The position numbers and the translations under genes were made by a program. The notes below the pieces were generated by a model. It worked only from the letters and a program-made list of their open reading frames with translations. It did no database searches and was not told the DNA's origin. DNA of 64,000 nucleotides from contig NZ_VKOG01000001.1 of assembly GCF_007474545.1 (NCBI RefSeq), positions 310,001 through 374,000 of the forward strand, read 5' to 3'. Positions 39,707-49,654 of this stretch are shown here, in pieces (position 1 is the first letter of the stretch; every line of letters begins with the position of its first letter). The stretch comes from Chryseobacterium binzhouense. GTDB taxonomy: Bacteria; Bacteroidota; Bacteroidia; Flavobacteriales; Weeksellaceae.

Positions 39707-39737
39707 TTGATATTAATGATTCTAAATTGTAGCTTTG
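39707..39737 (+). promoter_or_regulatory. Promoter of the NrtR-type gene
   Basis: TTG (39707-39709), a 20-base spacer and TAGCTTTG (39730-39737). The -7 box runs straight into a palindromic operator, see the next entry. Confidence 0.65.
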
Positions 39738-39754
39738 TGTATTCGTAACGCAAA
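39734..39754. promoter_or_regulatory. Putative NrtR operator 1
   Basis: Palindrome TTTGTGT-ATTCGTA-ACGCAAA spans 39734-39754. Its TTTG is the end of the -7 box. The arms are complementary except one G-T/C difference. Autoregulation of the gene is implied. Confidence 0.6.
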
Positions 39755-39762
39755 TTAGAACA

Positions 39763-40458
39763 ATGGAGTCTCCAAAAAAATTACAGGATATAAAAGTGGC
39801 TGTAGATGCAGTAATTTTCGGATATTTTGATAAGAAAGATCTTCAGATTCTTCTCATTAAAAGAAACATTGAGCCTTTCAAAGGAGGCTGGGCGCTTCCC
39901 GGAGGTCTGGTTTTGGATGATGAAAACCTGGATGATGCCGTAAAACGCGAACTCCATGAAGAAGCAGGAATAAAGCCCGATTTTTTGGAGCAGCTTTACA
40001 CTTTCGGAAACGTCGGTCGCGATCCTCGAAACCGTGTGGTTTCCATCGCTTATTTAGGACTTGTCAATCCATCCTACCATGAATTGTTTGCTGATTCTGA
40101 TGCGGAAGATGCACAATGGTTCAGCTTGAATCAGCTTCCGAAACTGGCTTTTGATCATCAATCCATTATTGATATTGCATTAAAAAGACTTCGTACAAAA
40201 CTCCAGTATCAGCCGATTGGTTTTAATCTTTTAAACGATGAATTTGCCTTTTCAGATCTTGAAAACCTTTACAAAACCATCATCGGAAAAGAAATAGACC
40301 GCCGTAATTTCCGCAAAAAGATCATGAGCTACGGATTGCTTAATGAAACCAATAATCTTAAAAAAGAAGGCAGCGGAAGACCCGGAAAACTCTTTACCTT
40401 CAATCAGGAAAAATATAAGGAACTGGAAGAGCAGGGATTTTATTTCGAAATCAAATAG
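39763..40458 (+). CDS. NrtR-type regulator: Nudix hydrolase with winged helix
   Basis: The 231-residue protein has an N-terminal Nudix domain (about 8-150) and a C-terminal winged-helix (about 160-231). NrtR proteins use the Nudix domain to sense ADP-ribose or related ligands and control NAD genes. Here the Nudix box is intact, G-x5-E-x7-RELHEEAGI, so hydrolysis of ADP-ribose is also plausible; many NrtR members have lost it. The winged helix has DRRNFRKKIMSYGLL and GSGRPGKLFTFN, a pattern typical of NrtR. Matching palindromes occur at its own promoter and at the promoter of the NAD/ADP-ribose cluster that follows, which fits a role as regulator. Confidence 0.88.
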   Translation: MESPKKLQDIKVAVDAVIFGYFDKKDLQILLIKRNIEPFKGGWALPGGLVLDDENLDDAVKRELHEEAGIKPDFLEQLYTFGNVGRDPRNRVVSIAYLGLVNPSYHELFADSDAEDAQWFSLNQLPKLAFDHQSIIDIALKRLRTKLQYQPIGFNLLNDEFAFSDLENLYKTIIGKEIDRRNFRKKIMSYGLLNETNNLKKEGSGRPGKLFTFNQEKYKELEEQGFYFEIK

Positions 40459-40823
40459 TTTTTCTTAAACACTAATAGCACAAATATTTACACTAATTTT
40501 CACGAATGATTCTGTTGTGTTCGCTGTCATTCAGAATGAAGCGAAATGAAGAATCTTTTAACTTAAACTAAACATAACAATAGATTCATCCTTCATCAGA
40601 ATGATACAAAGTGTGTATATTTTATTCTCTATATTAATTTTAAGATCAAGTTTTAGAGTTATAAGTACTGAACATTAGTCCGTTTTTTCATTTAATATCC
40701 CCAAATTAGATTTCACCTAAATGTAATAATAATTAAATATTGTCTCCTTTATCAAAGACATTTGCGCCATTCGTGTTTCAATAAAATAAATTTTTAATAC
40801 TGAAAATCAACCAATTAAAGTAT

Positions 40824-40844
40824 TTAGCGTAAAAATAACACAAA
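40824..40844. promoter_or_regulatory. Putative NrtR operator 2
   Basis: Palindrome TTAGCGT-AAAAATA-ACACAAA, one mismatch to TTTGYGT in the left arm, centred 54 bases upstream of operator 3, about five helical turns. Confidence 0.5.
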
Positions 40845-40848
40845 TAAA

Positions 40849-40881
40849 TTTGGAAGATAAAATCAGATTCCTTTAAATTTG
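40849..40881 (+). promoter_or_regulatory. Promoter of the NAD/ADP-ribose gene cluster
   Basis: TTTG (40849-40852), a 21-base spacer and TAAATTTG (40874-40881), an excellent match to the -33/-7 consensus, with the gene start at 40900. Confidence 0.7.
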
Positions 40882-40898
40882 TGTAAAAATAACGCAAT
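40878..40898. promoter_or_regulatory. Putative NrtR operator 3
   Basis: Palindrome TTTGTGT-AAAAATA-ACGCAAT begins on the TTTG of the -7 box and covers the transcription start and the leader up to the ATG at 40900, the same design as operator 1. Confidence 0.65.
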
Positions 40899-40899
40899 C

Positions 40900-41442
40900 A
40901 TGAAATATACATTAAATAATACCATCGAAAGATTCCATCAAAAAGAAAATCCGGAATTTCTTTTCTTTTGGGGACATACCGTGAAAGATGAAATTACAAA
41001 AGCCTGTTTCAGTCAGTGGTTTCCTTTTGAGTTTAAAGAAAACGGAATCATTTATAAAACAGCAGAACATTATATGATGGGCGGAAAAGCGAGATTATTT
41101 AATGATCATGAAATTTTAGAGCAAATTTTAAAAGCAGAAACTCCGAATCAGGCAAAAAATTTAGGCAGAAAAGTCAGAAATTTTGATCCTCAAATTTGGG
41201 ACGAGCATAAATATGAAATTGTAAAACAGGGAAATCTATTAAAGTTTTCTCAAAACGAAAAGTTTAAAGAATTCCTGCTTTCAACAGGCGATAGAATTTT
41301 AGTAGAGGCAAGTCCGTACGATAAAATCTGGGGAATCGGGATGCTGGAAACCAATGCAAAAGCAAAAGATCCTTCAAAATGGAATGGTGAAAATTTATTA
41401 GGATTTGCTTTAATGGAAGTAAGAGACGAATTAAGAGGGTAA
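40900..41442 (+). CDS. NADAR family protein (YbiA-like N-glycosidase fold)
   Basis: The 180-residue protein has the NADAR signatures FFWGHTV, AEHYMMGGKARLFND, and EASPYDKIWGIGM near the C-terminus. The family includes YbiA, acting on a riboflavin intermediate, and members that remove ADP-ribose from guanine in nucleic acids as antidotes to DarT-like toxins. The ATG at 40900 is chosen; the region upstream is promoter and operator. First gene of the cluster, followed by the oxygenase after a 31-base gap. Confidence 0.88.
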   Translation: MKYTLNNTIERFHQKENPEFLFFWGHTVKDEITKACFSQWFPFEFKENGIIYKTAEHYMMGGKARLFNDHEILEQILKAETPNQAKNLGRKVRNFDPQIWDEHKYEIVKQGNLLKFSQNEKFKEFLLSTGDRILVEASPYDKIWGIGMLETNAKAKDPSKWNGENLLGFALMEVRDELRG

Positions 41443-41473
41443 AAACACAATAACCGTAAACAAATTAGGAATC

Positions 41474-42022
41474 ATGAGAAAAACAGAACTTCATCCTCAA
41501 ATATTTGTGATAGAAAACTTTCTTTCCGACCAAGAATGCGATCATTATATTGAAATGACTCAGGACAAAGTATTTGAGGAAGCAAAAATCAATATGAGAG
41601 GTCGACAGGTGATGAGCAAAGGAATCCGAAACAACGACAGATTAATGATTTTCGATGAAAACTTAGCCGAAAATCTTTATGAAAGAGCCATCGAATTTCT
41701 TCCTCAGATTCATGATAACTATGAAGTTTCGGGCTTTAATGAAATGTTCAGGATTTATAAATATTCTCCGGGACAGCAGTTTAAAATGCACCACGACGGA
41801 AGCTACATCAGAAATGAGAATGAAAAAAGCTTTTACACTTTTTTAATCTATCTGAATGATGATTTTGAAGGCGGAGAAACAGAGTTTGAACATCTGTTCA
41901 CTGTAGCTCCGAAGAAAGGTTCAGCATTGGTTTTCTATCATCCTTTGAGACACGAAGGAAAAACATTGATCAGCAGACAGAAATATGTTTTAAGAACAGA
42001 TGTAATGTATTTAAAGACTTAA
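41474..42022 (+). CDS. 2OG-Fe(II) oxygenase (prolyl-4-hydroxylase-like)
   Basis: The 182-residue protein has the iron-binding HxD (His106 and Asp108 in MHHDGS) and distal His160 (RHEG), with a basic residue nearby for 2-oxoglutarate. IYLNDDFEGGETEF is typical of the prolyl-4-hydroxylase-like (P4Hc) subfamily. Such enzymes hydroxylate or demethylate proteins, nucleic acids or small molecules; the substrate is not known. It sits two bases before the next gene. Confidence 0.87.
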   Translation: MRKTELHPQIFVIENFLSDQECDHYIEMTQDKVFEEAKINMRGRQVMSKGIRNNDRLMIFDENLAENLYERAIEFLPQIHDNYEVSGFNEMFRIYKYSPGQQFKMHHDGSYIRNENEKSFYTFLIYLNDDFEGGETEFEHLFTVAPKKGSALVFYHPLRHEGKTLISRQKYVLRTDVMYLKT

Positions 42023-42024
42023 AA

Positions 42025-42429
42025 ATGAAAAAGATCTATGTATCAGGAAACGGAAATGTGTCCTGGGAGAAATTTCAGCAGTTTTATATCGAACTGTTAA
42101 AGAAATTCAATCTTGATGAGTGTGAATTTATCATCGGGGATTTTTCGGGAACCGATACATTAATGATGGAATTTTTAAAAGATAAAACAGAGAATGTAAC
42201 CATTCTTCATGTTGGAAAAAGACCGAGATATTTTGCCAATTCTTTTAAAACAAAGGCAGAAAAATGGAAAATTATAGGAGGATTTACTTCAAATTATGAA
42301 AGAGATACGTTTGGAATTGATCTATGCACTCATTTTCTGGCGGTTGATTTCAATACCGATGAAAAAAGAAAAAGCGGAACATTAAAAAACATCGAAAAGT
42401 GTTTTGCTTTAAATAAAATAAAAGTGTAA
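42025..42429 (+). CDS. SLOG-like nucleotide-binding protein
   Basis: The 134-residue protein starts KKIYVSGNGNVSWEKFQQF, then has CEFIIGDFSGTDTLMMEFLK and VTILHVGKRPRYF. This pattern of a glycine-rich first strand, GDxxGxD and a second strand resembles SLOG (SMF/DprA-LOG) Rossmann-like domains, which have been predicted to bind NAD-derived or nucleotide ligands. The assignment is by pattern and context, not by strong signature. It starts directly after the oxygenase gene. Confidence 0.6.
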   Translation: MKKIYVSGNGNVSWEKFQQFYIELLKKFNLDECEFIIGDFSGTDTLMMEFLKDKTENVTILHVGKRPRYFANSFKTKAEKWKIIGGFTSNYERDTFGIDLCTHFLAVDFNTDEKRKSGTLKNIEKCFALNKIKV

Positions 42430-42500
42430 AAAATTTTACCCATAATTTGCTTAAAAAAACACGAAAATTAACAAATTGTTTCACTAAAAATCATAAAGCT

Positions 42501-43504
42501 ATGTTTGGATTTACACACATCAAATTTGATTCTATGACGTACGTTCTTCATTTTAAAAATGGAAAGATTGCCAAAGAAGGAAGAGGTTTATCGTTCTTTT
42601 ATTTCGCTCCCAATTCGTCTATTGTGGCGATTCCGTTGGGAAGCAACGATCTGCCGTTTATCTTTAATGAAAACACGAACGATTATCAGACCGTGAAAAT
42701 TCAGGGACAGATCAGCTATAAAGTGACCGATCCTAAAGCACTTTCCAACACGCTGGATTTTACCGTGGACGGAGAAGGAGTTTACAAAAAGAATGATATT
42801 GAAAAGCTGAACCAGAGAATCATTAATCTTGCACAGACAGCGACTTCTTCTTTTGTACACAATCTTAGTTTAAAAGAAGCAATCCGTTCTGCCAAACAGA
42901 TTGAAGATCATATTCTGAAAGGATTAATAGATTCCGAATCCATTAAAAGCATGGGAATTGAAATTCTGGGAGCCAATATTTTAGCCGTTCAGACCACTCC
43001 GGAAATGGCAAGAGCCCTGGAAACGGAAACCCGGGAAAAACTGCAACAGCAAGCCGATGAAGCGATTTATGAAAGAAGAAATTTTGCGGTGGAACAGGAA
43101 AGAAAAATCAAGGAATCTGAACTAAATACGGAAATTGCTGTTGAAGAAAAGCAAAAGCAGATTGAAGAAAAAAGAATGGAAACCGAAGTTCAGCAGGAAG
43201 AAAACAACAGAATCCTTCGTGAAATGAAAATTGCCGCCGATATTTCTGTAGAAAACCAGAGAAAAAAACTGATCGAGCAAAAAACAGAAAACGACAGAAA
43301 AGAGCAGAGACTCAAGGTTATATTCTGGAAACTTCCTTAAAGCCATACAAAGAAATCGACTGGAAAGTACTGACTGCTTTGAGCGGAAGACAGGATGCGA
43401 GAAACAACATCGCCTTAGCATTCAGAGAATTGGCAGAAAATGCCGGAAAAATCGGAAACCTGAATATCAGTCCGGATTTGCTGGATACTATTTTGAAAAA
43501 GTAA
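42501..43504 (+). pseudogene. SPFH/band-7 domain protein, one-base frameshift
   Basis: The frame begins at the ATG at 42501 (MFGFTHIKFDSMTYVLHF) and runs into a stop at about 43340. A coiled-coil after the SPFH domain (about 190-290; EEKQKQIEEKRMETEVQQE) is typical of the family. In the next frame the natural continuation appears: GYILETSLKPYKEIDWKVL and on to LDTILKK, stop 43502-43504. Adding one A in CTCAAGG (43311-43317) would restore a 334-residue protein. It is either a real mutation, a sequencing error or a rare frameshift. SPFH proteins form membrane-associated scaffolds. Confidence 0.8.
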
Positions 43505-43552
43505 AGGAATTTTAAACTAAATTCTAGTTTCTAACCTCTAACTTCTAATGCA

Positions 43553-44461
43553 ATGAAAATCGAATACGCCATCATCATTAAAAATAAAACCCGCCTCGAG
43601 TCTTTGGTCGAAAGATTCAACACGCAGGCTCAGGCGAAGTTTTATATTGAAAGTTCCGGAGGAAATTTTAAGGAATATGTGGATGAACACGAAAAATTCG
43701 GTCAGTCATTTGTGGAAGTTCAGACACAGCTTTCCAAAATCATTAAAAATAAAGTGATTGAAAGGGAGTTTGTTCCTTCTTATATTTTCTCTGAAAACAA
43801 CCTGATTGTGGTGGTCGGACAGGACGGTTTGGTAGCCAATGTTGCCAAATACTCCAAACACATTCCGATCATTGCGGTGAATCCCGATCCCGAAAGATAT
43901 GACGGCGTTTTGCTTCCATTCACCGCAAAAAACTTTTTAAAAGGAGTGCAAGCTGTGATGAACGGAAATTTTAGTTCAAAAAAAATGAAGTTTGCCGAAG
44001 CAGTGCTGAATGACGGACAAAAATTACGGGCAGTGAATGATTTATTTGTAGGAATTTCTTCCCATTCTTCCGCGAGATACAAAATTATGCTGAACGGAAA
44101 ACAAGAAACCCATTCTTCCAGCGGAATCATAGTTTCCACAAAAACAGGAAGTACAGGTTGGCTGAGTTCCATTTTCAATATGGCATTTGGAATTTTAGGC
44201 GAAACCGGATTAAAATATCCGCAGCTCAATGAAGAAGATTTGTATTTTGCAGTAAGAGAACCTTTCAAAAGCATCCGAACGCAGACCGATATCTGCAGCG
44301 GAAAACTGAAAAAAGGAAACAAATTAATCATCGAATCACTAATGCCGAATAATGGTTTTATATTTAGCGACGGAATTGAGCAGGATTTTCTACAGTTCAA
44401 CAGCGGAGCAACAGCCGAAATCAGGCTTTCTGACGATGAAGCTGTTTTAGTTTTAAATTAA
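43553..44461 (+). CDS. NAD-kinase-like protein (paralogue)
   Basis: The 302-residue protein has the ATP-NAD kinase fold marks: a glycine-rich loop GQDG at 89-92, where true NAD kinases have GGDG; AVNPDPERYDGVLLPF; and the conserved STKTGSTGW loop at 195-203. NAD kinases make NADP. The changes in the GGDG and following motif suggest altered substrate or activity. Its place in an NAD-related cluster suggests a specialised NAD or ADP-ribose kinase. The housekeeping NAD kinase is expected elsewhere in the genome. Confidence 0.8.
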   Translation: MKIEYAIIIKNKTRLESLVERFNTQAQAKFYIESSGGNFKEYVDEHEKFGQSFVEVQTQLSKIIKNKVIEREFVPSYIFSENNLIVVVGQDGLVANVAKYSKHIPIIAVNPDPERYDGVLLPFTAKNFLKGVQAVMNGNFSSKKMKFAEAVLNDGQKLRAVNDLFVGISSHSSARYKIMLNGKQETHSSSGIIVSTKTGSTGWLSSIFNMAFGILGETGLKYPQLNEEDLYFAVREPFKSIRTQTDICSGKLKKGNKLIIESLMPNNGFIFSDGIEQDFLQFNSGATAEIRLSDDEAVLVLN

Positions 44462-44470
44462 ATAATAACC

Positions 44471-44554
44471 ATGAAAACTATACTATATTTAAAAGGCGAC
44501 GCAACAACCCTCAAGTTGAAGAGAATAAATCATTATTCTATAGTAGAACTCTGA
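44471..44554 (+). pseudogene. Possible remnant of a macro-domain gene
   Basis: A 27-codon frame, 9 bases after the kinase-like gene, encodes MKTILYLKGDATTLK and then unrelated residues to a stop. The first 12 residues match the usual start of TARG1/Poa1-like macro-domain proteins (xYxKGDAT). The sequence then loses similarity and runs into a dispersed repeat, as if the rest of the gene had been deleted. Confidence 0.4.
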
Positions 44555-44635
44555 GATCTTAGCTGAGTAGAACGCCTTTGCGAACTTAAACACAGTTAGT
44601 AATAAATAAAACCTTTGCGGTCTTTGCGTTAAAAA
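44551..44635. repeat. CTTTGCG-type intergenic repeat, copy 1
   Basis: GCCTTTGCGAACTTAAA, then AGTAATAA, and CTTTGCGGTCTTTGCGTTAA. Similar segments occur at 45722-45810 and 46360-46445. Confidence 0.7.
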
Positions 44636-44647
44636 AATAAAACAATC

Positions 44648-45082
44648 ATGAAAACAACAACTTTATACAGACCCGTCGGAGAAAAAGAAATGCTCTTAAT
44701 CATCGAAAGCAATTACAGAAAATTCCCTCCAAGACTAAACTGGCAACCCATTTTCTACCCCGTTCTGAATGAAGAATACGCTTCCGAAATCGCAGAAAAA
44801 TGGAACACACGAGACGAAGCCGGAAATTATCTCGGTTTTGTTACGAAGTTTGAAGTTTCTGAGGAAGTTGTCAGCAAATATCCCTCACAAAACGTAGGAG
44901 CAAGAAATCACAACGAACTCTGGATTCCTTCCGAAGAACTTGAAGAATTTAATCAAGCCATTATCGGAAGGATCGAAGTACCGAAAGTTTTCATTGGAAA
45001 AGATTTTAAAAAGGCGGCAAATAAAGAGATAGAAAATTTATTATTAAAAATTAACAATGAAAATCAATTTAAAAAAATATAA
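44648..45082 (+). CDS. Unknown protein, possible ADP-ribosyltransferase-like fold
   Basis: The 144-residue protein starts MKTTTLYRPVGEKEMLLI and has FPPRLNWQPIFYPVLN, then NHNELWIPSEELEEF. I recall similar proteins annotated as ADP-ribosylation/crystallin J1-like. An N-terminal pattern (xLYRP...L..I) faintly resembles ADP-ribosyltransferase folds such as KptA and DarT; this is speculation. It overlaps the DUF4291 gene by 26 bases, so the two are translated together. Confidence 0.6.
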   Translation: MKTTTLYRPVGEKEMLLIIESNYRKFPPRLNWQPIFYPVLNEEYASEIAEKWNTRDEAGNYLGFVTKFEVSEEVVSKYPSQNVGARNHNELWIPSEELEEFNQAIIGRIEVPKVFIGKDFKKAANKEIENLLLKINNENQFKKI

Positions 45083-45692
45083 AGAACAGCTACAGGATTG
45101 GCCGGAAAAAGGCTATCATATCATGTCTCAGTATGATGAAGATAAAATTATTGTCTACCAGTCGTATCGGAAAGAAATAGGTCAATTTGCCGTTAAAAAT
45201 CAATACTTTGGCGGAGCATTCAGTCTGGAAAGAATGACGTGGATAAAACCGAATTTTCTTTGGATGATGTTCCGAAACGGTTGGGGAACAAAAGAAGGGC
45301 AGGAATCTGTTCTCGCCATTCATTTGAAGATGGATGCTTTTAAAAATTATCTGAAAAATGCAGTCTATTCTTCATACAACGAGAAATTAGGAATTTCAAG
45401 GGAAGAATGGCAGAATCAGGTGAAAGAATCTTCTGTGAGACTGCAATGGGATCCGGATCACGATCCTTTCGGAAACAAACTGGAAAGAAGAGCGATTCAG
45501 ATTGGTTTGAGAAATGACTTCATTAAATCCTTTGCTAAAGAAGACCTCCTTTTGATTGAAGATATTTCAGATTTTGTTAAAGAACAGCACCAGTTTGTTT
45601 TGAATGATGATTTAGACAATTTAGTTCTTCCGGAAGAAAAACCGTTATTGTTTGATGATGAAGATTTAAATAAGAAATTAAGGTTAAAATAA
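45057..45692 (+). CDS. DUF4291 domain protein
   Basis: The 211-residue protein matches DUF4291: IIVYQSYRKEIGQFAVKNQ, FSLERMTWIKPNFLWMMFRN, GWGTKEGQE, and the VRLQWDPDHDPFGNKLERRA signature (quoted to 20) with IQIGLRN. The biochemistry is unknown. The conserved R-W-D-H-D residues look catalytic. It overlaps the preceding gene and sits in the cluster before the macro domain. Confidence 0.85.
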   Translation: MKINLKKYKEQLQDWPEKGYHIMSQYDEDKIIVYQSYRKEIGQFAVKNQYFGGAFSLERMTWIKPNFLWMMFRNGWGTKEGQESVLAIHLKMDAFKNYLKNAVYSSYNEKLGISREEWQNQVKESSVRLQWDPDHDPFGNKLERRAIQIGLRNDFIKSFAKEDLLLIEDISDFVKEQHQFVLNDDLDNLVLPEEKPLLFDDEDLNKKLRLK

Positions 45693-45721
45693 TGCTTATC
45701 CAAATTTCATGTCATGAAAAG

Positions 45722-45810
45722 CTCTCTGTGAACTTAGTTAAGTGAAACGGCTTTGCGAACTTAAAAGCATATAGTAGTAACAAAAAATTTTGCGGACTTT
45801 GTGTTAAAAA
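45722..45810. repeat. CTTTGCG-type intergenic repeat, copy 2
   Basis: AAGTGAAACGGCTTTGCGAAC, given in part, then AGTAGTAAC and TTTGCGGACTTTGTGTTAA. Closest to copy 3. Confidence 0.7.
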
Positions 45811-45832
45811 CTAAAACAAAATAAACACAACG

Positions 45833-46342
45833 ATGGAAATTGAATTAATAAAAGGTGACATCACTAAAATAAATACGGAAGCCATTGTGAATGCAGCCAA
45901 TTCTTCATTATTGGGAGGAGGTGGAGTAGACGGAGCCATTCATCGGGCAGGAGGAAAAAAGATTCTTGATGAGTGTTTAGAAATCCGAAAACGACAGGGC
46001 AAATGCAAAACAGGAGAAGCCGTTGTTACAACCGGTGGAAATCTCCCTGCGAAATACGTCATTCATACCGTTGGTCCGGTCTGGAATGGAGATGAAGAAA
46101 AAGGGTCGAAATTATTGGCAAACTGTTATTATAATTCATTGAAATTAGCAGAAAGTCTGAATGTTAAAACCATTGCTTTTCCCAACATCAGTACAGGAAT
46201 TTATCGGTTCCCAAAAGAATTGGCTGCTAAAATTGCCATAGATGAGGTGAAAAACTCTACATCGGAGATCATTGAAAAAGTTATTTTCGTATGTTTTGAT
46301 GATGAAAATGAGGAAATTTACAGAACACTGTTAAAAGAATAA
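45833..46342 (+). CDS. Macro-domain protein (O-acetyl-ADP-ribose deacetylase, YmdB type)
   Basis: The 169-residue protein has the macro-domain marks [20 protein letters not shown] and VIHTVGPVW, and [12 protein letters not shown] before the end. MacroD-type domains hydrolyse O-acetyl-ADP-ribose, made by sirtuins, and ADP-ribose on acidic residues. It lies between DUF4291 and the Sir2 gene, which makes the sirtuin product a likely substrate. A leader with a dispersed repeat precedes it. Confidence 0.92.
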
Positions 46343-46359
46343 TACAGAATAATAGTTTT

Positions 46360-46445
46360 TGTAAGCTTCGCTAAGTGAAACGGCTTTGCGAACTAAAAAC
46401 GTTTAGTAGTAACAAAAAAACTTTGTGGTCTTTGCGTTAAAAATA
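46360..46445. repeat. CTTTGCG-type intergenic repeat, copy 3
   Basis: CTTCGCTAAGTGAAACGGC, TTTGCGAACTAAAAACG, AGTAGTAAC, then CTTTGTGGTCTTTGCGTTAA. Very like copy 2. Confidence 0.7.
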
Positions 46446-46473
46446 ATACAAAAACAATGAAAAACTAAAACAA

Positions 46474-47160
46474 ATGAAAAAACTAACCATATTAACCGGC
46501 GCCGGAATCAGTGCCGAAAGCGGAATAAAAACTTTCAGAGACGGAGACGGTCTTTGGGAAAATCATAGCATCACAGATGTGGCAAGTCCGGAAGGATGGC
46601 GAAAAGACAGAGCTTTGGTTCTTGAGTTTTACAACCAGAGACGAAGACAGCTTCACGAAGTCGAGCCGAATGATGCACACCGATTATTGGCAGAACTGGA
46701 AAAACATTTTGAAGTTCAGATCATTACCCAGAATATTGATGATCTGCATGAAAGAGCAGGTTCAACCAATATTTTACATTTACACGGCGAATTATTCAAA
46801 TCCTGTTCCTGCAACAATAAAAACCTGATTTACGAGCAGAAAGACGACATTAACATCGGCGATAAAGCAGAAGACGGAGCGCAGCTAAGACCATTTATTG
46901 TCTGGTTCGGAGAAGATGTTCCGCTGATGAAAGAAGCTACGAAAATGGCAAAAGAAGCAGATATTTTTATTGTTATCGGAACTTCTTTACAGGTGTATCC
47001 TGCAGCGGGATTGCTACATAATATCAAGGATGACTGTCTTTTAATCGTGATCAATCCCAACGAAACAGGTTTCGGATACGGACAAAGAGCTGTTGTGATG
47101 AAAGAAACCGCAACGCAGGGAATGAAACTGCTTTTTGACAAACTCGTAAATCTTGCATAA
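46474..47160 (+). CDS. cobB: Sir2-family NAD-dependent protein deacylase
   Basis: The 228-residue protein has GAGISAESGI (9-18), QNID (86-89) and catalytic His104 in LHLHGEL. Tyr53 and Arg56 in FYNQRRRQ match the Y-xx-R pattern of class III sirtuins that remove succinyl and malonyl groups. The zinc cysteine pairs are mostly absent (only CSC at 111-113), as in other Bacteroidota. The reaction consumes NAD and yields O-acyl-ADP-ribose and nicotinamide. Its stop overlaps the next ATG (TAATG), so coupled translation with the ADP-ribosylglycohydrolase is likely. Confidence 0.94.
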   Translation: MKKLTILTGAGISAESGIKTFRDGDGLWENHSITDVASPEGWRKDRALVLEFYNQRRRQLHEVEPNDAHRLLAELEKHFEVQIITQNIDDLHERAGSTNILHLHGELFKSCSCNNKNLIYEQKDDINIGDKAEDGAQLRPFIVWFGEDVPLMKEATKMAKEADIFIVIGTSLQVYPAAGLLHNIKDDCLLIVINPNETGFGYGQRAVVMKETATQGMKLLFDKLVNLA

Positions 47161-48107
47161 TGGAAAATATTGTAAAAGCTGGAATTTTCGGCGTTTGTGT
47201 GGGTGATGCGTTGGGCGTTCCTGTAGAATTTAAAAGCAGAGAAAATTTAAAAGTGTTTCCCGTTGAAAATATGCGGGAATTCGGATCGTGGAACCAGCCG
47301 AAAGGAACATGGAGCGACGACAGTTCGTTAACGCTTTGCATTGCAGACGAACTCACAAAAGGCTATGATCTGGAAAAAATAGGACAAAGCTTTGTGAAGT
47401 GGGTAAAATACGGACATTGGACGGCTCACGGAAGATTATTCGATATTGGAGGAACAACAAGGCATTCTATCGCAAGATTAATAAAAGGAGAAAGCGCAAA
47501 ATTTTCGGGAAATATTTTCGAAGAAGATAACGGAAACGGTTCCTTAATGAGAACACTTCCGTTGGCGTTCTATCTTAAAGACGAAGAAAATATTGAAAAA
47601 CTTTATCAGACAGTAAAAGAAGTCTCTGCAATCACACACGGACATTTTCGTTCAGTGTTTGCCTGCTTTGTTTATGTAATTTTTGCCATTGAATTAATCA
47701 AAGGAAAAGATAAAAAAGAAGCGTATCAATATACTCAGAAATTGGTGTTGCAATTTTCAGAAATTCAAGGTTTTAACCCAAAAGAGATACAGCTTTTTGA
47801 CAGGGTTTTAAAGAATGATATTTCAGAATATCATGAAGATTCCATCAGTTCGGGAGGCTACGTTCTTCACAGTCTGGAAGCTTCATTATGGTGTTTTCTG
47901 AACTCTGAAAATTATGCTGAAGCCGTTTTAAAAGCCGTCAATCTGGGAGAAGATACCGACACAACCGGCGCCATAACAGGTGGAATTGCCGGAATATATT
48001 ACGGTTTTGAAAGTATTCCGAAAGAGTGGATTGATGTTTTGGCGAGAAAGGAGGATATTGAGACATTGTGTGAGAGATTAGAAAATAAATTAAAAATTAA
48101 ACCATGA
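47160..48107 (+). CDS. ADP-ribosylglycohydrolase (DraG/ARH family)
   Basis: The 315-residue protein has GDALGVPVEF at 15-24, the metal-binding SDDSS at 52-56, DIGGTTRHS, NGSLMR, and a C-terminal NLGEDTDTTGAITGG loop. ARH enzymes remove ADP-ribose from proteins (Arg or Ser) or nucleic acids, or hydrolyse O-acetyl-ADP-ribose. It overlaps the sirtuin by one base and KptA by four (ATGA). Confidence 0.92.
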   Translation: MENIVKAGIFGVCVGDALGVPVEFKSRENLKVFPVENMREFGSWNQPKGTWSDDSSLTLCIADELTKGYDLEKIGQSFVKWVKYGHWTAHGRLFDIGGTTRHSIARLIKGESAKFSGNIFEEDNGNGSLMRTLPLAFYLKDEENIEKLYQTVKEVSAITHGHFRSVFACFVYVIFAIELIKGKDKKEAYQYTQKLVLQFSEIQGFNPKEIQLFDRVLKNDISEYHEDSISSGGYVLHSLEASLWCFLNSENYAEAVLKAVNLGEDTDTTGAITGGIAGIYYGFESIPKEWIDVLARKEDIETLCERLENKLKIKP

Positions 48108-48646
48108 ACGAAATACAAAAGAAGAAAATAAGCAAATACCTAAGCTTGGTGCTTAGACACAAACCCGAAGTTATCGGGCTGAATTTAGACGAAAACGGAT
48201 GGGCAGATGTGGAAGAACTACAGGAAAAATGTGCAAAACAAAATCGCGCTTTTACACTGGAAGAATTGGATGAGTTGGTGGAAACCAACGATAAAAAACG
48301 CTTTATTTTAAACGAAGATAAAACCAGAATTCGTGCAAATCAGGGACATTCTATTAATGTCGATTTAGCTTTAAAGCCGCAACAGCCGCCGAAATTTTTG
48401 TACCACGGAACTTCAGAAGCCAATCTTGCATCCATCTTTGAAAAAGGAATTGAAAAGAGAAACAGACAGCACGTTCATCTAAGTCAGGACAAAGAAACCG
48501 CAACCAAAGTCGGAATGCGCCATGGAAAGCCTGTTATTTTAACCATTGAAACCGGGAAAATGCATGAATATGGAATGGTATTCTATCTTTCTGAAAATAA
48601 TGTTTGGCTGACTGATTTTATAGATGCAGAATATATTTTGCGATAA
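48104..48646 (+). CDS. kptA: RNA 2'-phosphotransferase (KptA/Tpt1)
   Basis: KptA moves a 2'-phosphate from RNA to NAD, producing ADP-ribose 1'',2''-cyclic phosphate and nicotinamide; some members also ADP-ribosylate or de-ADP-ribosylate RNA ends. The 180-residue protein has KYLSLVLRH (R18, H19), RANQGHS, and LYHGTSEANL (HGT at 101-103), the catalytic R-H-R-R pattern. The macro domain in the same cluster could process the product. Last of the coupled Sir2-ARH-KptA trio. Confidence 0.94.
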   Translation: MNEIQKKKISKYLSLVLRHKPEVIGLNLDENGWADVEELQEKCAKQNRAFTLEELDELVETNDKKRFILNEDKTRIRANQGHSINVDLALKPQQPPKFLYHGTSEANLASIFEKGIEKRNRQHVHLSQDKETATKVGMRHGKPVILTIETGKMHEYGMVFYLSENNVWLTDFIDAEYILR

Positions 48647-48661
48647 AAATACTCTTATAAG

Positions 48662-48670
48662 TTATCCACA
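48662..48670 (+). promoter_or_regulatory. Perfect DnaA box before the WYL gene
   Basis: TTATCCACA, exact consensus, 72 bases before the WYL gene start. A single copy, so it may be a regulatory DnaA site or chance. Confidence 0.35.
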
Positions 48671-48681
48671 AAAATTAAACA

Positions 48682-48696
48682 CGACAAGTTTTGTCG
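48682..48696. promoter_or_regulatory. Palindrome CGACAA-gtt-TTGTCG before the WYL gene
   Basis: A perfect 6-bp inverted repeat sits upstream of a TATATTTG -7 box (48708-48715), in the place of the -33 region, so a regulator bound there would block the promoter. The WYL protein itself is the natural candidate. Confidence 0.5.
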
Positions 48697-48707
48697 CATT
48701 AAGAATA

Positions 48708-48715
48708 TATATTTG
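48708..48715 (+). promoter_or_regulatory. -7 box of the WYL gene
   Basis: TATATTTG, an exact TAnnTTTG match, 19 bases before the ATG. The TTTG of the palindrome lies too close to be a normal -33 element. Confidence 0.45.
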
Positions 48716-48733
48716 TGGTAGAAACTTCTAAGA

Positions 48734-49654
48734 ATGAAAAAAGATTTTTACCTCACGAGATACGCACTGATTATTAAAAAATTAGAATCTGCACCTTCTA
48801 CCTATTCCCAGATAGAAGAATATCTGCTCAATTCTTTTGAATTTCAGGATGCAGAAATCAAAAGCTATTCTATGCGGACGCTGCAAAGAGACATCCGGGA
48901 AATTTCCAATCTTTTTAATCTCACCATTCATAATAAAAAAAGGAGGGACAACCGGTACTATATCGACAGCCGCCCCATGATGGAAGTTGATGAATATAAC
49001 CAAAAATTGCTTGAGTCTTTTCAGGTAAGCAATGCATTAAATCTTCATCCCGATTTTTCAGATTTTATTTTTTTTGAAAGCAGAAAGCCTACAGGATTAG
49101 AACATTTTTACGATCTTTTTTTTGCCATCAGAAACAAAAGAATTGTTCTGTTTGAGCATTATAATTACAAAAATAAAAAGATGACATCAAGGAAAGTTCA
49201 TCCCTTAGCGCTCAAAGAATCCAAAGACAGATGGTATCTGATTGCGGTTGACACAAAAGATAAAACCTTAAAATCATTTGGATTAGACCGGATAAATCAT
49301 CTTTCGGTAACTCCGCAGAAATTCAGAGAAAAATATAAATACAATTTTAGAGAGCATTTTAAAAATGCTTTTGGAGTGATGAATCTTACTGAGCAAAATC
49401 CGCAGAAGATTGTTCTGAAATGCAGCAGGCATCAGGGTGAATATATCAGAAGCTTTCCGCTTCACCAGTCTCAAAAAGAGGTAAAAGAAACACCGGATGA
49501 TATTTATTTCGAGTTTTTTCTTCATCCGACTTATGATTTCAGACAAGAAATTTTATCTTACGGAAAAGAGGTAAAAGTAATGGAACCCGAAAGCCTGATC
49601 AGAGAAATCAGAGAGAGTTTATCAGATTCTCTGCAGGCATATTCTGAAGACTAA
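48734..49654 (+). CDS. WYL-domain transcriptional regulator
   Basis: The 306-residue protein has an N-terminal helix-turn-helix (about 1-75; SYSMRTLQRDIREIS) and a WYL domain (about 125-210; WYLIAVDT at its core, preceded by KVHPLALKESKDR) plus a C-terminal WCX-like extension (YDFRQEILSYGKEVKV). WYL domains sense nucleic acid or nucleotide ligands and often regulate DNA-damage or defence genes. It follows KptA by 87 bases, with its own palindrome and -7 box. Confidence 0.9.
   Translation: MKKDFYLTRYALIIKKLESAPSTYSQIEEYLLNSFEFQDAEIKSYSMRTLQRDIREISNLFNLTIHNKKRRDNRYYIDSRPMMEVDEYNQKLLESFQVSNALNLHPDFSDFIFFESRKPTGLEHFYDLFFAIRNKRIVLFEHYNYKNKKMTSRKVHPLALKESKDRWYLIAVDTKDKTLKSFGLDRINHLSVTPQKFREKYKYNFREHFKNAFGVMNLTEQNPQKIVLKCSRHQGEYIRSFPLHQSQKEVKETPDDIYFEFFLHPTYDFRQEILSYGKEVKVMEPESLIREIRESLSDSLQAYSED

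What the first reader, a model, noticed from the sequence alone, without database searches (positions are those of the whole stretch)
39734..49654. NAD/ADP-ribose gene island under a Nudix regulator
Twelve genes on one strand encode enzymes or ligand-binders that use or remove ADP-ribose, NAD or 2'-phosphates: NrtR-type Nudix, NADAR, 2OG oxygenase, SLOG-like, SPFH, NAD-kinase-like, unknown, DUF4291, macro, Sir2, ARH, KptA, with WYL at the end. From known families, KptA and Sir2 consume NAD and yield ADP-ribose derivatives that macro, ARH and NADAR can process, so the island could make, read and erase such marks on RNA, DNA or protein. Inference: it is a defence or damage-repair module, perhaps against ADP-ribosylating toxins. 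Parts of such neighbourhoods have been noted before, but I do not know of this full set.
Basis: partly seen in the sequence, partly recalled or inferred. Interest (0 to 1): 0.85.

Follow-up and report, generated by a model that had tools for sequence, protein, structure and literature searches.

The report
ADP-ribose gene island with hidden writers
A Chryseobacterium-type bacterium carries a conserved block of genes, apparently switched by one ADP-ribose-sensing repressor together with an NAD salvage gene, that looks built to attach, remove and recycle ADP-ribose marks, and two of its unexplained proteins have the shape of ADP-ribose-attaching enzymes.

Summary
The island is real and conserved. 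Twelve genes from NrtR to KptA lie on one strand (39763-48646) and most family calls hold. In 93 distinct loci holding lepA and Sir2, the marker genes present are colinear in 93 of 93; NrtR 93, KptA 90, P7 89, ARH 83, NADAR 81, Macro 73 (loci were picked by P7 or DUF4291). WYL is a neighbour: 2 of 93.

New here: (1) a 15-bp operator, GYGTN7ACRC, before nrtR in 90 of 93 loci and as a tandem pair before NADAR in 81 of 81. The same site precedes pncB in 12 of 12 genomes looked at and in the window's own, so NrtR probably controls NAD salvage and the island together. (2) The 'unknown' gene (P7) has an ADP-ribosyltransferase fold, best match RhsP2, with invariant R8-Y37-E90; it is fused to PARG in 26 of 80 named loci. 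(3) DUF4291 has the RhsP2 fold but no obvious R-Y-E triad.

Best reading: an ADP-ribose-derepressed module that writes, erases and recycles ADP-ribose, probably on RNA. Nearest precedents: the ARG-centred systems of Iyer et al. 2022 and the YarT-YbiA pair. No activity has been tested.

The parts
39730..39737 (+). -7 box TAGCTTTG of the nrtR promoter (TAnnTTTG consensus of Bacteroidota, recalled)
   Evidence: sequence
39737..39751 (+). NrtR operator GTGTATTCGTAACGC, shares one base with the -7 box, starts 26 bp before the nrtR ATG
   Evidence: same region in 90 of 93 distinct loci
39763..40458 (+). NrtR: Nudix domain with intact Nudix box plus winged-helix repressor domain
   Evidence: Pfam NrtR_WHD 4.7e-22, NUDIX 8.2e-21; box intact in 108 of 109 NrtR ORFs, not de-duplicated
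40827..40841 (+). upstream operator of the tandem pair, GCGTAAAAATAACAC
   Evidence: pair in 81 of 81 loci, 53-54 bp apart
40874..40881 (+). -7 box TAAATTTG of the island promoter (consensus recalled)
   Evidence: sequence
40881..40895 (+). downstream operator GTGTAAAAATAACGC, shares one base with the -7 box
40900..41442 (+). NADAR ADP-ribosylhydrolase family
   Evidence: Pfam 1.9e-58; in 81 of 93 loci
41474..42022 (+). 2OG-Fe(II) oxygenase, role unknown
   Evidence: Pfam 2.9e-12; in 59 of 93 loci
42025..42429 (+).
   Evidence: no match; in 20 of 93 loci
42447..43340 (+). SPFH/Band 7 protein, reading frame cut short against relatives
   Evidence: Pfam 1.6e-17; frame comparison; in 18 of 93 loci
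43553..44461 (+). NAD-kinase-like protein (GQDG for GGDG, TGST kept; motifs recalled)
   Evidence: NCBIfam NAD kinase models, best 1.4e-8, below cut-off; motifs; in 18 of 93 loci
44648..45082 (+). P7: predicted ADP-ribosyltransferase, R8-Y37-E90, fused to PARG in part of the relatives
45057..45692 (+). DUF4291: RhsP2-like ART fold, triad not recognised
45833..46342 (+). Macro domain, O-acetyl-ADP-ribose deacetylase type
   Evidence: Pfam 1.9e-49; NCBIfam NF001664 236.2 bits, cut-off 200
46474..47160 (+). Sir2, with motifs that I recall from CobB-like deacylases
   Evidence: Pfam 7.8e-45; motifs
47160..48107 (+). ADP-ribosylglycohydrolase (ARH)
   Evidence: Pfam 1.2e-76
48104..48646 (+). KptA RNA 2'-phosphotransferase
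   Evidence: Pfam 2.2e-54; recalled motifs found

Best explanation
The island is an ADP-ribose-handling gene block held down by NrtR. Free ADP-ribose, the known ligand of some NrtR relatives, probably releases the repressor from the operators that abut the nrtR, NADAR and pncB promoters. Derepression makes NAD-consuming enzymes (KptA, which removes RNA 2'-phosphates; Sir2; the predicted transferase P7 and perhaps DUF4291), enzymes that remove ADP-ribose from RNA, protein or small products (NADAR, ARH, Macro, and PARG in many relatives), and PncB, which refills NAD. NrtR's intact Nudix box suggests it may also destroy its own inducer, so the response would switch itself off. The likely setting is RNA or NAD damage. 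Shown by sequence: the gene set, its conserved order, the operator-like sites, the pncB site, the intact Nudix box. Predicted: the ART folds of P7 and DUF4291. Inferred: every enzymatic activity, binding of NrtR to these sites, the inducer, and RNA as the main target.
Against: No activity has been measured. In the 12 genomes the matches outside the islands (46 of 80, my count from the listed places) equal the backward-pattern control (45), so most outside matches are chance and the pncB claim rests on its place and recurrence alone; species of one genus are also not independent. P7 has no recognised ADP-ribose hydrolase beside it in 7 distant loci (L171, L172, L174, L175, L186, L187, L188; neighbours tested only in part), so it need not work in a writer-eraser pair. 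DUF4291 occurs without any other island gene that I could recognise in 4 of 11 loci outside the genus (L134, L135, L136, L143) and in L004. The window's own genome gave no PARG match (whose control genomes were silent too). DUF4291 lacks a recognised triad. P7 and DUF4291 show no significant sequence similarity to each other or to KptA. P7's Foldseek E-value is weak (0.0037) and its VIA score of 8.8 stands only about 1 above the next rows. Three gaps of 131-186 bp (before P7, Macro and Sir2) leave room for further promoters; there are no transcript data.
Confidence: 0.5

Rival explanations
1. Eraser-only defence: the island repairs ADP-ribose damage done by outsiders (phage or rival-bacterium transferases), as proposed for the ARG-centred systems of Iyer et al. 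2022; P7 and DUF4291 would be ADP-ribose binders or hydrolase helpers, not writers.
For: Similar cast (Nudix repressor, ARG, Macro, NADAR; in relatives a calcineurin-like phosphatase and a protein that I read as vWA-like, Pfam none) to PMC9503650 section 3.8 (read in full). Modular gene content with exclusive cassettes, [SPFH+NAD-kinase-like] 18 loci, [vWA-like+PurA-like] 68, both 0, neither 7 of 93; that paper lists variable modules and displacement as hallmarks of conflict systems.
Against: Those systems were picked for the absence of coupled ARTs or sirtuins, whereas this one has Sir2 in 93 of 93 (a condition of the count) and KptA in 90 of 93 loci. P7 keeps residues expected of an active transferase. 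The repressor also has a site before pncB. KptA in 165 of 174 genomes of the genus is unlike a sporadic defence gene.
Confidence: 0.25
2. Metabolite housekeeping: the island only clears and recycles small ADP-ribose products of KptA and Sir2 and keeps NAD level; macromolecular marks are not its business.
For: pncB site; NadR-like genes in 7 of 93 islands; PRPP-synthetase and NAMPT genes in islands of another genus, the enzyme families of the NAD-rebuilding NARP1 pathway (PMC12774641, passages); Macro of O-acetyl-ADP-ribose deacetylase type. Iyer et al. think phage Macro and NADAR mostly act on small ADP-ribose derivatives (PMC9503650 section 3.7.2).
Against: NADAR, ARH-like and PARG enzymes remove marks from nucleic acids in published assays (PMC11833690, passages and a section; PMC11125620, section). 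KptA acts on RNA. P7 looks like a transferase.
Confidence: 0.2
3. P7 is the toxin of a toxin-antitoxin arrangement like YarT-YbiA, the NADAR/PARG/ARH genes being antitoxins, and the rest a NAD-metabolism neighbourhood.
For: YarT, a 114-aa ART with an H-Y-E motif next to a YbiA-type NADAR, is toxic in E. coli and rescued by its YbiA (PMC11125620, section 6 and passages). P7 directly follows NADAR in L140, L182 and L184 and lies beside NADAR in Deinococcus; P7-ARH pairs in L183 and L185; P7-PARG fusions.
Against: First motif residue is R, not H, and no sequence comparison with YarT was made. In the window four genes lie between NADAR and P7. No recognised hydrolase neighbour in 7 distant loci. 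Fixed chromosomal place after lepA in the genus.
Confidence: 0.2

Closest known systems
ARG-centred anti-ADP-ribosylation systems (Iyer et al. 2022, PMC9503650, section 3.8)
   Same: ADP-ribosylglycohydrolase, NrtR-like Nudix repressor, Macro, NADAR; in relatives also a calcineurin-like phosphatase and a protein that I read as vWA-like; modular content; ADP-ribose as proposed inducer
   Different: Has Sir2 and KptA (and P7, DUF4291), which their search criterion excluded; no phosphatase in the window; that section names actinobacteria, planctomycetes and proteobacteria among its lineages, here Flavobacteriales; operator and pncB link not described in that section
NrtR regulons of NAD metabolism (background in PMC4666351, passages)
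   Same: Nudix plus winged-helix repressor; operator before its own gene and before an NAD gene (pncB)
   Different: Nudix box intact, said there to be impaired in NrtR regulators of NAD metabolism; putative regulon includes ADP-ribose writers and erasers
YarT-YbiA toxin-antitoxin pair (PMC11125620)
   Same: small stand-alone ART-fold protein tied to a NADAR gene in some lineages; conserved Tyr and Glu
   Different: R-Y-E instead of H-Y-E; many lineages; fused to PARG or next to ARH; embedded in a large gene block
RhsP2 RNA 2'-OH ADP-ribosyltransferase (PMC12340436, passages; PMC11833690)
   Same: best VIA match of both P7 and DUF4291; P7 has conserved R, Y, E
   Different: no Rhs or secretion part; chromosomal block; activity and substrate unknown; DUF4291 lacks a recognised triad
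NARP1 (Adps-Namat) NAD-rebuilding pathway (PMC12774641, passages)
   Same: PRPP-synthetase-like plus NAMPT-like genes in islands of another genus
   Different: absent from the window's island; Namat clamp residues not tested

Membership tests
ARG-centred systems (Iyer 2022) | ADP-ribosylglycohydrolase gene | tested here: met
   Pfam 1.2e-76
ARG-centred systems (Iyer 2022) | Nudix or WYL one-component repressor (over 42% of them) | tested here: met
   NrtR_WHD and NUDIX
ARG-centred systems (Iyer 2022) | no coupled ART or sirtuin | tested here: not met
   Sir2 and KptA in the island; KptA in 90 of 93 loci
ARG-centred systems (Iyer 2022) | coupled phosphatase (a little over 55% of them) | tested here: not met
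   none among the window's island proteins; Metallophos protein in 82 of 93 loci
NrtR NAD regulon | Nudix plus NrtR winged-helix domain | tested here: met
NrtR NAD regulon | shared operator before own gene and an NAD gene | tested here: met
   by sequence only:
NrtR NAD regulon | impaired Nudix box | tested here: not met
   box intact in 108 of 109 NrtR ORFs; impaired in L023, L138 and L140 of another genus
NrtR NAD regulon | ADP-ribose or NAD as effector | not testable with these tools
   needs a binding assay
ART superfamily (P7) | ART fold | tested here: met
ART superfamily (P7) | catalytic triad in place (R-Y-E type) | tested here: inconclusive
   R8, Y37, E90 invariant in 16 of 16 sequences, but no residue-level superposition was available
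ART superfamily (P7) | NAD-dependent transferase activity | not testable with these tools
   needs an assay
ART superfamily (DUF4291) | ART fold | tested here: met
ART superfamily (DUF4291) | R-Y-E, H-Y-E or R-S-E triad | tested here: inconclusive
   invariant residues near these places are Y34-Q35, W69-R73, Q130 and D132; no such triad stands out, but no residue-level superposition
YarT-YbiA pair | small ART gene directly next to NADAR | tested here: not met
   in the window four genes lie between them; adjacent in L140, L182, L184 and L173
YarT-YbiA pair | H-Y-E motif | tested here: not met
   R at the first place in 16 of 16
RhsP2 / Rhs toxins | Rhs delivery part fused to the ART domain | tested here: not met
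   P7 144 aa, DUF4291 211 aa, no Rhs domain in Pfam

The most novel reading that the evidence does not exclude
P7 is a new, widely spread family of non-secreted RNA ADP-ribosyltransferases, and the island is an endogenous, reversible RNA ADP-ribosylation system: P7 (and perhaps DUF4291) marks RNA, probably at ribose 2'-OH, the fused or neighbouring PARG removes the mark, KptA clears 2'-phosphates from the same damaged RNAs, and an NrtR with a working Nudix enzyme senses and destroys the released ADP-ribose while inducing NAD salvage.
Probability: 0.2. Interest if true: 0.85.

Novelty: new variant of a known kind. Interest (0 to 1): 0.62.

Why it matters
As far as I know, KptA in bacteria, NADAR outside toxin pairs, DUF4291 and endogenous bacterial RNA ADP-ribosylation all lack a settled role. 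This locus puts them in one block with a predicted switch, gives the operator sequence, names two candidate transferases, and lies in Chryseobacterium, where deletion, RNA-seq and ADP-ribosyl-RNA blots would be direct tests. If P7 is active, an enzyme family found in Flavobacteriales, Streptomyces, Rhizobium, Deinococcus and huge phages gets a function.

Tried and rejected
Rejected: WYL as a member (2 of 93 loci). An island-only regulon: the pncB site contradicts it. The extra site before secA in the own genome (ORFs) was taken as chance, since backward-pattern controls gave similar genome-wide counts (4 against 5, 10 against 11). A word that also recurs in the 12 genomes, GTGTAGCGGTAACAC, lies in a tRNA-Gln gene in the two places checked. 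GTGTAGAATTAACGC lies inside a coding frame (L169, L170). Sites near transaldolase/galactokinase genes were left aside as possibly another NrtR-family regulator's. Of the 46 outside matches, 19 were fetched. Sequence-only homology of P7, DUF4291 and KptA: not significant. PDB sequence searches with the P7 and DUF4291 profiles gave nothing useful. Sigma-70 and terminator scans were at background. DUF4291 in print: 0 papers in the held library.

Limits of the counts: the 80 named loci were chosen by P7 (best 80 of 173) and the 40 unnamed loci by DUF4291 (from the hits), so the frequencies of these two are inflated; Sir2 and lepA are conditions of the 93. 121 loci (these plus the window) collapsed to 105 distinct and 93 with lepA and Sir2. 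The 93 are of one genus and were not corrected for kinship, so the Fisher p of 6.6e-14 for cassette exclusivity is not a true probability. Presence was scored by tblastn, so broken genes may count as present. Of the 18 further stretches (L134-L144) were mapped. P7 alignment: 39 of 80 named loci plus the window; L063 and L087 were dropped because their stretch held a stop, and L081, L085, L091, L110, L115 and L125, given, were left out from then on without a test. DUF4291 alignment: 39 of the 52 stretches listed plus the window. The P7 homologue of Deinococcus (L173) is in the alignment, not in that. One of the 26 P7-PARG fusions was checked in Pfam (L048). 'vWA-like', 'TonB receptor' and 'NadR-like' are my readings; Pfam gave none for the first, AAA_28 and CTP_transf_like for the last, and the receptor was not searched.
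Full report
What is there. Twelve + strand ORFs run from 39763 to 48646: NrtR, NADAR, 2OG oxygenase, a 134-aa protein, SPFH, an NAD-kinase-like protein, P7 (the 'unknown'), DUF4291, Macro, Sir2, ARH and KptA. The NAD-kinase-like call is remote and the SLOG-like call could not be confirmed. Motifs that I recall for KptA, Macro, Sir2 and ARH active sites are present. WYL follows at 48734.

Is it conserved? DUF4291 was found in 61 of 148 relatives. Forty stretches of up to 20 kb around it, then 80 named loci found with P7 (all Chryseobacterium), show one pattern: lepA, often a DUF1579 gene, nrtR, NADAR, 2OG, a variable cassette, P7, PARG, DUF4291, Macro, Sir2, ARH, KptA, calcineurin-like phosphatase. 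After removing duplicates, 93 loci hold lepA and Sir2: NrtR 93, KptA 90, P7 89, ARH 83, phosphatase 82, NADAR 81, Macro 73, PurA-like 68, PARG 66, 2OG 59, DUF4291 56, SLOG-like 20, SPFH 18, NAD-kinase-like 18, WYL 2. Eight markers, where present, are colinear on one strand in 93 of 93; all eight are present in 57. KptA alone is in 165 of 174 genomes of the genus. The cassettes [SPFH + NAD-kinase-like] (18) and [vWA-like + PurA-like] (68) never occur together; 7 loci have neither. Outside the genus, related islands occur in L023, L137-L142, L144, L182 and L184; those of L023, L137, L138, L140, L144 and L184, all of one other genus, add PRPP-synthetase and NAMPT genes. In four of the eleven stretches mapped (L134, L135, L136, L143) DUF4291 had no other recognised island gene near it.

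The switch. Reading upstream DNA gave a palindromic word GYGTN7ACRC. The own genome holds four exact matches to GYGTWWNNRTAACRC, three of them at 39737, 40827 and 40881, control 5; because the pattern came from these sites, that count is not independent. In relatives there is a site before nrtR in 90 of 93 loci, a tandem pair 53-54 bp apart before NADAR in 81 of 81, and a site before the vWA-like block in 60 of 68, with 107 matches elsewhere (the vWA-block sites included) in 1.84 Mb; over 252 sites the arms are fixed by the pattern, while the third to seventh inner bases vary. These species are one genus and share descent. In 12 genomes (11 of one contig) the pattern GYGTANNNNTAACRC gave 80 matches, 34 in the islands and 46 outside by my count, against 45 for the backward control, so the outside matches in bulk are chance. 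Among them the word GTGTAATTTTAACGC lies 5-7 bases before the start of the same gene in 9 genomes; its orthologue in the own genome is a nicotinate phosphoribosyltransferase, pncB, with the same site. The three genomes without the exact word carry GCGTATAAAATACAC or GCGTATAAATTACAC there: arms kept, centre changed. In the own genome the nrtR, NADAR and pncB operators share one base with a TAnnTTTG -7 box (the consensus is recalled), the geometry expected of a repressor. NrtR relatives bind ADP-ribose or NAD (PMC4666351, passages). That paper says the Nudix signature is impaired in NrtR regulators of NAD metabolism; here it is intact in 108 of 109 ORFs, so this NrtR may hydrolyse its own ligand (inference).

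How it works, most likely. ADP-ribose released by NAD-consuming reactions lifts NrtR; the cell then makes KptA, Sir2 and P7, the hydrolases that strip ADP-ribose, and PncB to refill NAD. Among the hydrolases tested in PMC11833690 only PARG types reversed RhsP2's 2'-OH marks; the NADAR, ARH and other macrodomains did not (section read). A P7-PARG fusion therefore hints at RNA 2'-OH marks. The window's genome showed no PARG (its control genomes were silent), so there P7 would have to work with NADAR, ARH or Macro, or on another substrate. All of this paragraph is inference from sequence and those papers.

Known relatives. The closest published idea that I read is the ARG-centred system of Iyer et al. 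2022 (section 3.8 read in full), which already joins ARG, NrtR-like Nudix or WYL repressors, phosphatases, vWA, Macro and NADAR and proposes ADP-ribose induction. The present island fails that paper's criterion of no coupled ART or sirtuin, so I call it a variant, not a member. YarT-YbiA (section and passages read) is the nearest published case to P7 plus NADAR. I saw no description of this full set in the listings, in a library that lacks most subscription journals; older Aravind-group surveys of NADAR and RNA repair are known to me only by recall and were not read.

Noticed in passing
window 44549-44635, 45724-45810, 46357-46443: An 87-nt direct repeat (69-79% alike) fills three intergenic gaps of the island; its core AACGNCTTTGCGAACT occurs 5 times in the own genome, 3 of them here, control 0. 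Role unknown.
   Followed up: partly
window 42447-43505: The SPFH reading frame ends early; the last ~60 residues seen in four relatives lie in another frame. Real frameshift or assembly error.
   Followed up: partly
L129 (Vibrio phage Va1), L130 (Rhizobium phage RHph_Y65), L131 (Mycobacterium phage Turret): The vWA-like plus PurA-like gene pair that stands in for SPFH + NAD-kinase-like in most relatives is also paired in one phage of each of three groups looked at; in the Rhizobium phage it is near an NMN adenylyltransferase/Nudix gene.
   Followed up: partly
L023, L137, L138, L140, L144, L184: Islands of another genus of the order carry PRPP-synthetase-like and NAMPT-like genes, the families that form the NAD-rebuilding NARP1 pathway; whether they are Adps/Namat was not tested.
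   Followed up: partly
L161, L162, L163, L167, L168: Operator-like words also lie near transaldolase or galactokinase genes (named by my reading of their translations), perhaps sites of a second NrtR-family sugar regulator.
   Followed up: no
L024, L027, L039, L040: A TonB-receptor-like and a NadR-like gene sit just before Sir2 in some relatives, possibly uptake and conversion of an NAD precursor.
   Followed up: no
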